Shown here: positions 35,401-41,400 of the stretch, piece by piece | How the letters are laid out: the number at the start of each line of letters is the position of its first letter | Numbering within the stretch: position 1 is the first letter of the stretch | From: Ovis canadensis | Taxonomy: Eukaryota > Chordata > Mammalia > Artiodactyla > Bovidae | Assembly (NCBI RefSeq): GCF_042477335.2 | Contig: NC_091245.1 | Location: 86,776,501-86,840,500, forward strand | Length of the DNA stretch: 64,000 nucleotides | Direction of reading: 5' to 3' | Translations under genes and position numbers: made by a program | The notes under the pieces: generated by a model | Databases searched by the model: none | Seen by the model: only the letters and a program-made list of their open reading frames with translations | Told to the model about the DNA's origin: nothing

Positions 35401-38400
35401 CCTGGATCTAAAATGATAATGACAAAATTATAGCAAACATAATAGTTCTACTGGTTCACACCTTAACAGTTTGCAAAGTCTTTTTGCTGAAGAGGAGTTG
35501 GAAGCTTAGACAGGTATAATTAGCCTCGCTTTACACAGGAGGAAACAGGCTCAGAGAGGTTACATAACTTTTTAAGGTCACAAAGCTGAGCAGTGACAGA
35601 GCCTGGATTTGAACCCAGACAGTCTGACTTCAGAGTCATAAAAATGCGTTATTACTGGCACTTGCATAACACTTTTAACATTCTGTAGTTCCATGTTAAT
35701 TTTATCTGTTCATTGTATGTGTTCCTCACAGAAATGTAAGCATCTTGACAGTAGGTGATTTGTCTGTGTTATTTATATTGTATCCCCAATACTTAGAAAA
35801 GTACCTAACATTTAGCAATAAATATTTGCTGAATGAATGGATAATATTAGCAGTAGACTCTCTTTTCAGGGCTATTTATCACAAAGTTATAGAGTCCTCA
35901 TCATCTTGCAACAGTTGCTGTAAACTTGGGACCAGTTAAGAGCAAACCCAGACCTCACAGAGTGCTGACCGGCTGGGCTGCCTCACTAGGCTCGTTCACA
36001 CCATACTGAAGCTAACTTTGGCTCAGGACAAGAGAGAGAACCAGCTGTGAACCTTTGAGATCATTTGTTAAAACCACCCTGGCTCAGAGTTTACTATACT
36101 GAGTATGCACTCCTTATTGGGCATTCAATTAGATGTTTGGGCTGCAAAGATGGGTGCAAAGGTGCAAGACAAATGAGACACAGTTGTATGGGGACACAGA
36201 GGCTGGGGCAAAGAATTCTGCCTTGGGGCGGGTGGCTCTGCATCAGGGTCGGGTCATATAAATGGCCTAATTCTGAAGATGAGGCTTGAATGAATGGGAT
36301 TTTGCCAGGTGGTTAAGTGTTCTGAGGAGGCAAACCTAACTTGTTTGGAAGGGCTAACATTGTATAATCTTCAACATCCTGTCTGAAATGCAAAAGTAGG
36401 AAGTCAAGAGATACCTGGAGTAACAGGCAAATTTGGCCTTGGGGTACAAAATGGAGTGGGGCAAAGGCTAACAGAGTTTTGCCAAGAGAACGCACTGGCC
36501 AGAACAAACACCCTCTTCTAACAAGAGAAGACTCTACACATGGACATCACCAGATGGGCAATACCGAAATCAGATTGATTATATTCTTTACCGTCAAATG
36601 TGGAGAAGCTCTATACAGTCAGCAAAAACAAGACCAGGAGCTGACTATGGCTCAGATCATGAACTTCGTATTGTAAAATTCAGACTTAAAATGAAGAAAG
36701 TAGGGAAACCCACTAGACCATTCAGGTATGACCTAAATCAAATCCTTTATGATTATTTGTAAGGGATTTGACAGATTCAAGGGATTAGATCTGATAGAGT
36801 GCCTGAAGAACTATGGACAGAGGTTTGTGACATTGTACAGGACGAAGTGATCAAGACCATCCCCAAGAAAAAGAAATGCAAAAAGGCAAAATGGTTGTCT
36901 GAGGAGGCCTTACAAAGAGCTGTGAAAAGAAAAGAAGCTAAAGGCAAAAGAGAAAAGGAAAGATATACGCATTTGAATGCAGAGTTCCAAAGAATAGCAA
37001 GGAGAGATAAAGACTTTCTAAGTGATCAATGCAAAGAAACAGGAAAACAATAGACTGGGAAAGACTAGAGATCTATTCAAGGAAATTAGAGATACCAAGG
37101 GAACATTTCATGCAAAGATGGGCACAATAAAGAACAGAAATGGTATGGACTTAACAGAAGCAGAAGATATTAAGAGGTGGCAAGAATATACAGAACTATA
37201 CAAAAAAGACCTTAATGGCCCGGAAAGCCACCATGGGGTGATCACTCACCTAGAAACAGTCATCCTGGAGTGTGAAGTCAAGTGGACCTTAGGAAGCATC
37301 TCTACAAACAAAGCTACTGGAGGTGACGGAATTCCAGATGCTGCTGCTGATGCTGTGAAAGTGCATCATATTCAATATGCCAGTAAATTTGGAAAACTTG
37401 GCAGTGACCACAGGACTGGAAAAGGTTAATTTTCATTCCAATCCCAAAGAAAGGCAATGCCAAAGAATGTTCAAACTACTGCACAATTGCACTTATCTCA
37501 CATGCTAGCAAATTAATGCTCAAAATTCTCCAAGCCAGGCTGCAAGAGTATGTGAACTGTGACCTTCCAGATGTTGAAGCTGGATTCAGAAAAGGCAGAG
37601 GAAGCAGAGATCAAACTGCCAACATCTGTTGACTCACCGAAAAAGCAAGAAAGTTCCAGAAAAACATCTACTTCTGCTTTATTGACTATGCCAAAGCCTT
37701 TGACTGTGTGAATCACAACAAACTGTGGCAAATTCTGAAAAAGATGGGAATACCAGACCACCTGACCTCCCTCCTGAGAATTCTATATGCAGGTCAGGAA
37801 GCAGCAGTTAGAAATGGACATGGAGATAAGCGTCCTAGTGATTTTGGCACCATGAGCTCAATCGGCACCGGGTATGATCTGTCAGCTTCTACATTCTCTC
37901 CGGATGGAAGAGTTTTTCAAGTTGAATATGCTATGAAGGCTGTGGAAAATAGTAGTACAGCTATTGGAATCAGATGTAAAGACGGCGTCGTCTTTGGGGT
38001 AGAAAAATTAGTCCTGTCTAAACTTTATGAAGAAGGTTCCAACAAACGACTTTTTAATGTTGATCGACATGTTGGAATGGCAGTAGCAGGTCTGTTGGCA
38101 GATGCTCGTTCTTTAGCAGACATTGCAAGAGAAGAGGCTTCCAACTTTAGATCTAACTTTGGATATAACATTCCACTAAAACATCTTGCAGACAGAGTGG
38201 CCATGTATGTACACGCGTATACGCTCTACAGTGCTGTTAGACCTTTCGGCTGCAGTTTCATGTTAGGGTCTTACAGTGTGAATGACGGTGCACAACTCTA
38301 CATGATTGACCCATCGGGTGTTTCATATGGTTATTGGGGCTGTGCCATTGGCAAAGCCAGGCAGGCTGCAAAGACAGAAATTGAAAAGCTTCAGATGAAA

Positions 38401-41400
38401 GAAATGACCTGCCGTGATGTTGTTAAAGAAGTTGCAAAAATAATTTACATAGTACACGATGAAGTTAAGGATAAAGCTTTTGAACTAGAGCTCAGCTGGG
38501 TTGGTGAAATAACTAATGGAAGACATGAAATAGTTCCTAAAGATATAAGGGAAGAGGCAGAGAAATATGCCAAGGAATCTTTGAAGGAAGAAGATGAATC
38601 AGATGATGATAACATGTAACATTAACTTGTATATTAAATTTCTAATACAGTCCCATGTAACTATTTAGCCCTTTGGATTATTACATACCAATTTTCATTA
38701 AATTTTTGTCTTACAACGAAAAAAAAAAAAGAAATGGACATGGAACAACAGACTGGTTTCAAATCAGGAAAGGAGGACGTGAAGGCTGTATATTGTCACC
38801 CTGCTTATTTAACTTCTATGCAGAATACATCATATGAAATACCGGGCTGGATGAACCACAAGCTGGAATCAAGATTGCAAGGAGAAATATCAATAACCTC
38901 AAATATGTAGATGACACCACCCTATGGCAGAAAGCAAAGAAGAACTAAAGAGCCTCTTGATGAAGGTGAAAGAGGAGAGTGAAAAAGTTGGCTTAAGCTC
39001 AACATTTAGAAAACTAAGATCATGGCATCTGGTCCCATCACTTCATGGCAAATAGATGGGGAAACACTGTAGGGAGAGACTTTACTTTTTTGGGCTTCTT
39101 CACTGCAGATGGTGACTGCAGCCATGAATTAAAAGACGCTTGCTCCTTGGAAAAAAAGGCCATGACCGACCTAGACATCATATTAAAAAGCAGAGACATT
39201 ACTTTGCCAACAAAGGTCCGTCTAGTCAAAGCTAAGGTTTTTCCAGTAGTCATGTGTGGATATGAGAGTCGGACTATAAAGAAAGCTGAGCATCAAAGAA
39301 CTGGTGCTTTTGAACTGTGGTGTTGGAGAAGACTCTTGAGAGTCCCTTGGACTGCAAGGAGATCCAACCAGTCTATCCTAAAGGACATCAGTCCTGAATA
39401 ATCATTGGAAGGACTGACGCTGAAGCTGAAACTCCAATACTTTGTCCACCTGATGTGAAGAACTGACTCATGTGAAAAAACACTGATGCTGGGAAAAATT
39501 GAGGACGGGAGGAGAAGGGGATGACAGAGGATGAGATGGTTGGATGGCAATCACCAACATGATGGACATGAGTTTGAGCAAGCTCCAGGGGTTGGTGATG
39601 GACTGGGAAGCCTGGTGTGCTACAGTCCATGGGGTCACAGAGTCAGACACAACTGAGTAACTGAACTGAACTAAACAACATCCTGTCCTTAACTCTGACT
39701 AGAATCTATTCAAGTTTGAATAATATTCACAATCATTCAGATGATTCCATTTGTTGGAATTTTAATTTGGTCTGAAATGGTCTGATATCTGAGGTTAACA
39801 AAAAGAATGGAGAGACTGTGGTGATCAATTTGAATTCGTGATCTTGCATACATAGACAATCCAAAAGAATTTAACTTGAGGGAAAGAAAATGTAGAAGTG
39901 GACTCATGGGAAATAGTTCTTTTAGTGAGTGTGCTATTATGTAGTAGGGAGAGTACAAAGCTATTAAGAAAAATGATTTCTTCCAGGCACACAAAATCTA
40001 CAAAAATGTTATTATTCATCCAGAAGAAATAGTTCTTCAGCAGTTCTTTAGCAGTTCATCTGTTTAAACTGCATTGTTACACCCTAAACCAATAAGAAAT
40101 GTCAAAAACCAGCACTTGAAATAGCTTCTAATTTTTAAAATCTGGTTCTACTTTAAATAATGATTCATAGGCCTTTGGAAAGTTAAATTTTCATGAAATG
40201 TTAAGATAGAATTCAGTGATTCCATGAATTAGGATTCTATAAATACATAAAAACCATTTTTCCTGGCATGAAATTAAGCTGTAGGTTGCTGTATTACCTC
40301 ATTTAAGGGTGGAGAGGATATGAATGACAAGTCATCCAGGTTGATTGGAGAATTCATGGGAAGAGAGACAGCTGAAGTACATTTGCTTTTATTAATTTTC
40401 TCTTTAAAATCTTTAAGTGGCGTCTCCAACTTGAAGATTTCACTGTCTACTTTTCTAGGTAAATATAAACAAACAGGCATCTTATTGGGTATGCAGTCCA
40501 TATTCTTACTAGTAACAACTGTTCTTGAATATAGCATTGATTTACATTTTTAAGGTGGTCTGTCTTCAGACAGGAAAGATGATGGACCCTGACAGACATT
40601 CTGTTTATAGTTTCACTTCAAAGGCCTGGACTCTTGTTCTCTTTATTTTCTTCCAGTTTTATTGAGCTATAACTGACATACAGGACTGGATAAATTTAAG
40701 GTGTACAGCATAAAGATTTGACTTTCATCATGAAATAATTATCACAAGTTTAGTGAACATCCATCATCTCATACAGACATAATATTAAAGAAATAAATAT
40801 TTTGTGTGTGTGATAAGAACTGTTAGGACTTACTCTCAACTTTCATATATAACATACAGAAGTATTAATTATATTATGTTGTATATTTCTAATTCTTATT
40901 TTGTTATTCATTAGCTGTGTATCCTTGGGCAAATTATTTAATCTTTCTGTGTCTCAACTATGAGATAATACCCTACATATGTGGATCTGATTATTTTGAG
41001 GTCCCTTACAGTTAGTCCTAGGAGCTATAATTCTGGAAAAAAATGATTTATATCACTTGAAAAAGAATAACATGAGAAATCTGAATAATAAGCTCAATCC
41101 ATAGGTATATGTACATATGGGTATATGTGTATATATGTATAGGGCTTCCCTGATGGCTCAGATGGTAAAGAATCTGCCTCCAAGGCAGGAGACTCCATAT
41201 GTACATACATATATAAGGATATATATTTTGCCCCCAAAGAATTAATTTTCCCCAAATTCATTAAAATTATTAAATTTTATCTATTACCCCCCAAAAAAGT
41301 ATAAATCCCAAAACTTTAAAAATTATATCACAGCTGTCAAAACAATGCAAAGGTGTTCCTTCTTACCACTCCTATTCAGCACTGTACTGGAAGTCCTACC

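What the first reader, a model, noticed from the sequence alone, without database searches (positions are those of the whole stretch)
37810..38744. Intact PSMA3 retrogene inside a BovB inside an AKNAD1 intron
All hallmarks of an L1-mediated retrocopy are present: no introns, poly(A), perfect 15-bp target-site duplications and an L1-like nick site. The 255-codon frame is undamaged and, from memory, differs from human PSMA3 at only two conservative residues (V190, I220). Its BovB host is full of stops, so the copy is much younger than the BovB or has been preserved. If expressed, it could supply a second alpha-7 subunit or an antisense transcript across AKNAD1.
Basis: partly seen in the sequence, partly recalled or inferred. 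Interest (0 to 1): 0.75.

Follow-up and report, generated by a model that had tools for sequence, protein, structure and literature searches.

The report
Young processed copy of PSMA3
A ruminant-type chromosome carries an intact, intron-less copy of a proteasome gene, pasted by L1-like machinery into an older mobile element; it is most simply a recent copy that has not yet had time to decay, and nothing in the sequence shows that it works.

Summary
Window 37810-38744 is an L1-type retrocopy of PSMA3 mRNA: 27-nt 5'UTR, intact 255-codon frame, 3'UTR with ATTAAA, 12-nt A run, perfect 15-bp target-site duplications. It lies in a BovB (36384-39675, own 12-bp duplication), antisense in an AKNAD1 intron (recalled query). 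The BovB site is unoccupied in 4 of 4 other copies spanning it.

One claim changes. V190 and I220 are very probably parental: the chain of bovine 20S structures 7dr6 and 8fz5 has both, and the copy differs from it only at I232.

Youth alone explains the intact frame. In a neutral simulation, an open frame with at most one amino-acid change falls below 5% near 0.55% divergence (interpolated); the host BovB is about 6.8% diverged. CpG is high (o/e 0.55; 0 of 961 window tiles as high), though codon-junction CpGs are half of those in shuffles. Parental nucleotide sequence, orthologous sites and expression could not be tested, and the species is unidentified. Verdict: an ordinary young processed copy; function unproven and unlikely.

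The parts
36372..36383 (+). 5' target-site duplication of the host BovB (12 bp)
   Evidence: exact 12-mer repeated at 39676-39687 and nowhere else on this strand of the window; BovB homology begins at 36388
36384..37809 (+). Left part of host BovB, apparently truncated at its 5' end, many stops
   Evidence: 83.7% and 85.3% identical to the two copies with the longest matches; 15-28 stops per frame; truncation inferred from length
37810..37824 (+). 5' copy of the retrocopy's target-site duplication
   Evidence: maximal exact 15-bp repeat
37825..37851 (+). Retrocopy 5'UTR, 27 nt
   Evidence: sequence between duplication and ATG; start context GGCACCATGAG
37852..38619 (+). Intact PSMA3 frame, 255 codons and stop
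   Evidence: 254 of 255 residues identical to 7dr6_R; Pfam Proteasome and Proteasome_A_N
38620..38718 (+). Retrocopy 3'UTR with ATTAAA at 38697-38702
38719..38730 (+). poly(A) run, 12 nt; last A shared with the duplication
38730..38744 (+). 3' copy of the retrocopy's target-site duplication
38745..39675 (+). Right part of host BovB
   Evidence: 83-86% identical to the four other copies that span the site
39676..39687 (+). 3' target-site duplication of the host BovB
37633..38619 (+). Stop-free stretch that joins a remnant of the BovB reverse-transcriptase frame to PSMA3 (328 codons)
   Evidence: 64 upstream residues match the reverse-transcriptase frame of the copy near 47.2-48.3 kb at 78%, E 4e-37
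40295..40456 (-). AKNAD1 exon upstream (in gene order) of the insert
   Evidence: tblastn with recalled human AKNAD1, E 5e-11
31051..31137 (-). Next AKNAD1 match downstream (in gene order) of the insert
   Evidence: tblastn with recalled human AKNAD1, E 0.001, in gene order; query residues 514-582 found no match, so a further exon may lie between

Best explanation
A spliced, polyadenylated PSMA3 mRNA was reverse-transcribed in a germ cell by L1 proteins. The L1 endonuclease nicked the bottom strand of an old BovB at TT/AGAAA, the poly(A) tail primed on the freed end, and second-strand synthesis left a cDNA with the whole frame between 15-bp duplications. This happened recently, long after the BovB had decayed, and the frame is intact because too little time has passed for neutral mutation to break it. 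The copy is probably transcriptionally silent or at most weakly expressed. Shown: anatomy, nesting, empty paralogous sites, near-identity of the protein with a bovine PSMA3 chain, high CpG. Inferred: L1 as the enzyme, germ-cell origin, recent date, lack of function.
For: Perfect 15-bp duplications, poly(A), ATTAAA, intact frame. Site unoccupied in 4 of 4 other BovB copies spanning it (two of them also by pattern). 254/255 identity with the chain of 7dr6/7dr7/7drw/8fz5/8fz6, proteasomes whose bovine source is given in the papers. Neutral simulation: P(intact frame and at most one amino-acid change) is 0.74 at 0.1% divergence, 0.068 at 0.5%, 0.013 at 0.75%, and 0 of 600 at 1% and each higher step. 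Host BovB differs from the majority of 4-5 copies at 96 of 1404 counted positions (6.8%). CpG o/e is 0.554 in the frame and 0.567 in the whole copy, against 0.154 in the BovB flanks and 0.243 in 12 AKNAD1 exon matches; 0 of 961 window tiles outside the insert are as high as the frame.
Against: The host species is not identified and its own PSMA3 nucleotide sequence could not be fetched, so silent differences, the direct clock, are not counted. High CpG may be inherited from the parental mRNA, and codon-junction CpGs are half of the mean in synonymous shuffles (9 against 18.0), so some loss has occurred in parent or copy. The bovine reference is not unanimous: 1iru_G, a bovine structure by PMC7854634, carries a sequence from which the copy differs at 190 and 220 and not at 232. 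I232 is also the human state and may mark a copy made before V232 arose, which would allow greater age with constraint. A good start context and a complete frame mean that function is not excluded.
Confidence: 0.87

Rival explanations
1. An older retrogene kept intact by purifying selection and expressed as a second alpha-7 subunit, for example in testis.
For: Frame intact, protein almost identical to a bovine PSMA3 chain; 3'UTR and poly(A) signal present. Precedents: the mouse PA28-beta retrogene inserted in a LINE1 and driven by it in reporter assays (described in PMC2413143, passages), and testis-specific duplicate proteasome subunit genes in Drosophila (titles in that paper's reference list).
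Against: CpG is far above the surroundings, which constraint on the protein alone would not preserve for long at codon junctions. The host BovB seems truncated at its 5' end (and recalled full length). No promoter was tested for. An extra near-identical alpha-7 has no evident use, since each alpha ring holds one (recalled; inference).
Confidence: 0.07
2. The insert gives a chimeric protein: BovB reverse-transcriptase remnant joined in frame to PSMA3.
For: No stop between 37633 and 38619; the 64 codons up to the end of the duplication are in the BovB reverse-transcriptase frame and the 27-nt 5'UTR adds 9 more. An in-frame ATG lies at 37744, 36 codons before the PSMA3 start (read).
Against: The stretch begins right after a stop codon; phase would agree by chance in about one of three insertions; no promoter or transcript is shown.
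Confidence: 0.01
3. A regulatory antisense RNA: PSMA3 sequence in antisense within the AKNAD1 primary transcript, or a plus-strand transcript acting on AKNAD1.
For: Opposite orientation to AKNAD1 and position in one of its introns.
Against: An antisense orientation is what about half of random insertions would have (inference); the insert carries its own poly(A) signal; no transcript evidence.
Confidence: 0.03
4. Segmental or assembly artefact rather than a retrocopy.
For: None found.
Against: Duplication, poly(A) and empty paralogous sites are those of an insertion by target-primed reverse transcription.
Confidence: 0.01

Closest known systems
Mammalian L1-generated processed copies (retrocopies) of protein-coding genes
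   Same: No introns, poly(A) tail and target-site duplications, the three hallmarks named in PMC7692494 (abstract and passages seen); young intact but non-functional copies are discussed in PMC2657826 (passages seen; its table lists 163 cow retrogenes, partly predicted)
   Different: Nothing essential; this one sits inside a BovB and keeps a full frame
Mouse PA28-beta retrogene (written PMSE2b in PMC2413143; Zaiss and Kloetzel 1999 cited there; original not seen)
   Same: Intronless copy of a proteasome-system gene inserted in a LINE
   Different: That copy is driven by the LINE1 in luciferase assays; here the LINE is a BovB that seems truncated at its 5' end, and no expression is known
Testis-specific duplicate proteasome subunits of Drosophila (reference titles in PMC2413143; papers not seen)
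   Same: Duplicate proteasome subunit genes
   Different: By their titles those are testis-specific and one is required in spermatogenesis; no such evidence here
PSMA3, proteasome subunit alpha type-3 (alpha-7), chain 7dr6_R / 8fz5
   Same: 254 of 255 residues
   Different: I232 in the copy, V232 in that chain; the copy has no introns

Membership tests
L1-mediated processed retrocopy | Intronless copy of a spliced mRNA | tested here: met
   255 codons uninterrupted and colinear with the PSMA3 protein; that the PSMA3 gene has introns is recalled
L1-mediated processed retrocopy | 3' poly(A) after a poly(A) signal | tested here: met
   ATTAAA 38697, A run 38719-38730
L1-mediated processed retrocopy | Target-site duplications of about 7-20 bp (range recalled) | tested here: met
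   15 bp, perfect; site unoccupied in 4 of 4 paralogous copies
L1-mediated processed retrocopy | L1 endonuclease site TT/AAAA (consensus recalled) | tested here: met
   TT/AGAA, one mismatch
PSMA3 (alpha-7 proteasome subunit) coding sequence | Complete frame with both proteasome alpha domains | tested here: met
   PF00227 E 7.6e-53 and PF10584 E 3.1e-14, both over cut-off
Functional retrogene | Transcription evidence (definition in PMC2657826) | not testable with these tools
   no RNA data held
Functional retrogene | dN/dS well below 1 against the parental gene | not tested
   parental nucleotide sequence not obtained: search of the window's own genome did not complete; no confirmed relative in viral or prokaryote contigs
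Functional retrogene | Preserved at the same site across species | not testable with these tools
   the collections offered hold no ruminant genomes by their descriptions

The most novel reading that the evidence does not exclude
A recent, lineage-restricted second PSMA3 gene that is expressed in some tissue and supplies alpha-7 with I232, possibly polymorphic between individuals, so that proteasome subunit dosage differs between animals.
Probability: 0.05. Interest if true: 0.4.

Novelty: new member of a known kind. Interest (0 to 1): 0.13.

Why it matters
As it stands, little: processed copies of highly expressed genes are common in mammals, and young ones are often intact (general knowledge). 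It matters practically, because a near-identical intronless copy can mislead PSMA3 read mapping, qPCR and variant calls in the species, and nested duplications give a relative order of BovB and later insertion in this lineage. If expressed, it would be a natural test of extra alpha-7 dosage.

Tried and rejected
Preservation by selection as the main reason for the intact frame: not needed, because neutral decay is compatible with the data up to about 0.55% divergence (interpolated between the 0.5% and 0.75% steps).

1iru, called bovine in PMC7854634, carries I190 and L220 in a sequence shared by 29 entries; 1IRU served as template or starting model for the 7dr6 and 8fz5 groups, yet their chains differ from it, and I take theirs as the better bovine sequence (inference).

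BovB machinery as the inserter: not favoured, since BovB-type elements end in short repeats rather than poly(A) (recalled). BovB promoter as driver: not favoured, because the host seems truncated (length; full length recalled). No promoter scan was run.

Junction CpG test by synonymous shuffling: 9 observed, mean 18.0 in 2000 shuffles, 0.05% of shuffles at or below 9. The frame is thus itself depleted in junction CpG, which goes against calling it undecayed and cannot be split between parent and copy.

Relatives of the protein in IMG/VR and GTDB contigs: 12 and 29 stretches matched a pattern, none was confirmed. The retrocopy has no other copy in the window. Pfam on 10 of the 82 stop-to-stop frames of 95 codons or more: 2 of 10 gave reverse transcriptase, the other 8 nothing, the large AKNAD1 exon among them.

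No paper on a PSMA3 retrocopy in ruminants was seen in the listings (2 of 2 listed; 20 of 55 listed; 0 found; 15 of 53 listed); this is an open-licence library only. The listings led to the papers cited or to nothing new; that was not used.
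Full report
What is there. Positions 37825-38729 hold 905 bases of PSMA3 cDNA: 27 nt of 5'UTR, a 255-codon frame at 37852-38619, a 3'UTR with ATTAAA at 38697, and a run of 12 A (38719-38730, the last A shared with the duplication). It is bounded by perfect copies of AGAAATGGACATGGA at 37810-37824 and 38730-38744; the repeat cannot be extended on either side. Pfam finds the proteasome subunit domain and the alpha N-terminal signature. No other copy is in the window.

The insertion site. Both flanks belong to one BovB (the name is recalled; copies in the window encode reverse transcriptase). 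The host runs from about 36384 to 39675 and has its own 12-bp duplication CAACATCCTGTC at 36372-36383 and 39676-39687. Without the insert it is about 2.37 kb, less than the recalled full length of about 3.2 kb, so it seems truncated at its 5' end. Four other BovB copies in the window cover the insertion point, and in 4 of 4 the left and right parts are separated only by the 14 to 18 bases of the site itself. Two of them match the joined 29-base site at 29 and 28 bases. The insertion is therefore a clean event. The cut TT/AGAAA is close to the L1 preference (recalled).

Host gene. The insert lies between the matches at 40456-40295 (E 5e-11) and 31137-31051 (E 0.001), on the opposite strand; query residues 514-582 found no match, so another exon may lie in that interval. 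The name AKNAD1 rests on recall, the homology on the search; Pfam named no family in the large exon.

Parent protein. The best of 25 PDB sequences at E 1e-60 or better is the chain of 7dr6, 7dr7, 7drw, 8fz5 and 8fz6, identical at 254 of 255 residues; the one difference is I232 in the copy, V in the chain. The next, 5a0q (human by recall), differs at two, 190 and 220. The proteasomes of the first group are bovine (PMC7854634, passages; PMC10319324, passages). Against this, 1iru_G, a bovine structure too, has I190 and L220; its sequence is shared by 29 entries, and I take it for a human sequence used in an older model (inference). Whether I232 is a change in the copy, an older state of the parent, or the host species' own state is open, since the species is not known.

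Age. Aligned with the other copies, the host BovB departs from the majority at 28 of 489 counted positions in the 515 bases left of the site and at 68 of 915 on the right, 96 of 1404 in all (6.8%). Columns without a majority and gaps (14 and 12) were set aside; the host takes part in the majority, which lowers the figure, and CpG decay is included, which raises it. A neutral simulation of the frame (600 runs per step, CpG sites tenfold, 0.12 indels per substitution, my settings) gave the chance of an intact frame with at most one amino-acid change as 0.475 at 0.2%, 0.165 at 0.4%, 0.068 at 0.5%, 0.013 at 0.75%, and 0 of 600 at each step from 1% up. At about 2.2 per billion years per site (recalled mammalian average) 0.55% is about 2.5 million years. 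So the copy is either at most a few million years old or constrained. The bound of one change takes the 7dr6 chain as the parent's protein.

Young or constrained. CpG speaks for young. The frame has 17 CpG, o/e 0.554; the BovB flanks 0.154; 12 of the 14 AKNAD1 matches, joined, 0.243; of 961 overlapping window tiles of the same length outside the insert none reaches 0.554 (mean 0.201, largest 0.498). Constraint on the protein alone would not keep codon-junction CpGs for long (inference). Against this, synonymous shuffles of the frame's own codons give 18.0 junction CpGs on average where 9 are seen, so there is depletion, which a parental mRNA might also show. Without the parental sequence these cannot be parted.

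Function. Most likely none. The host BovB seems to have lost its 5' part, so an element promoter as in the mouse PA28-beta retrogene (PMC2413143, passages) is not expected; no promoter was tested. A stop-free stretch joins 64 codons of the BovB reverse-transcriptase frame, up to the end of the duplication, and the 9 codons of the 5'UTR to PSMA3 (328 codons, 37633-38619); it has an in-frame ATG at 37744. Phase agrees by chance in about one of three cases. An antisense effect on AKNAD1 is possible in principle and untested.

What could not be done. The window's own genome was never reached, and the collections offered hold no ruminant genomes or RNA data by their descriptions. The comparisons that would settle it are listed in the next steps. 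Literature listings (not all hits were listed) showed no paper on this copy in the open-licence library; cow retrogenes as a class are known (PMC2657826, passages).

Noticed in passing
37633-38619 (+): The insert happens to be in phase with the BovB reverse-transcriptase frame, giving a 328-codon stop-free stretch across the junction, with an in-frame ATG at 37744.
   Followed up: yes
47202-48260 (-): A BovB copy with a 352-codon stop-free reverse-transcriptase frame (RVT_1 E 1.1e-27) that spans the empty site; the least diverged of the copies compared (2.8% left and 4.8% right off the majority).
   Followed up: partly
46217-48891: BovB pieces in both orientations: 46217-46469 and 48431-48891 on plus, which continue each other in the element with a 9-base overlap, and 46469-48430 on minus between them, suggesting one BovB inserted in another.
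   Followed up: no
18166-18351 and 19499-19648 (-): Matches to the C-terminal part of AKNAD1 are weak and hold a stop each; these may be extensions past exon ends or decay of the gene in this species.
   Followed up: no
PDB entry 1iru chain G: A bovine 20S structure (by PMC7854634) whose PSMA3 chain sequence has I190 and L220, as in 5a0q and unlike 7dr6 and 8fz5.
   Followed up: partly
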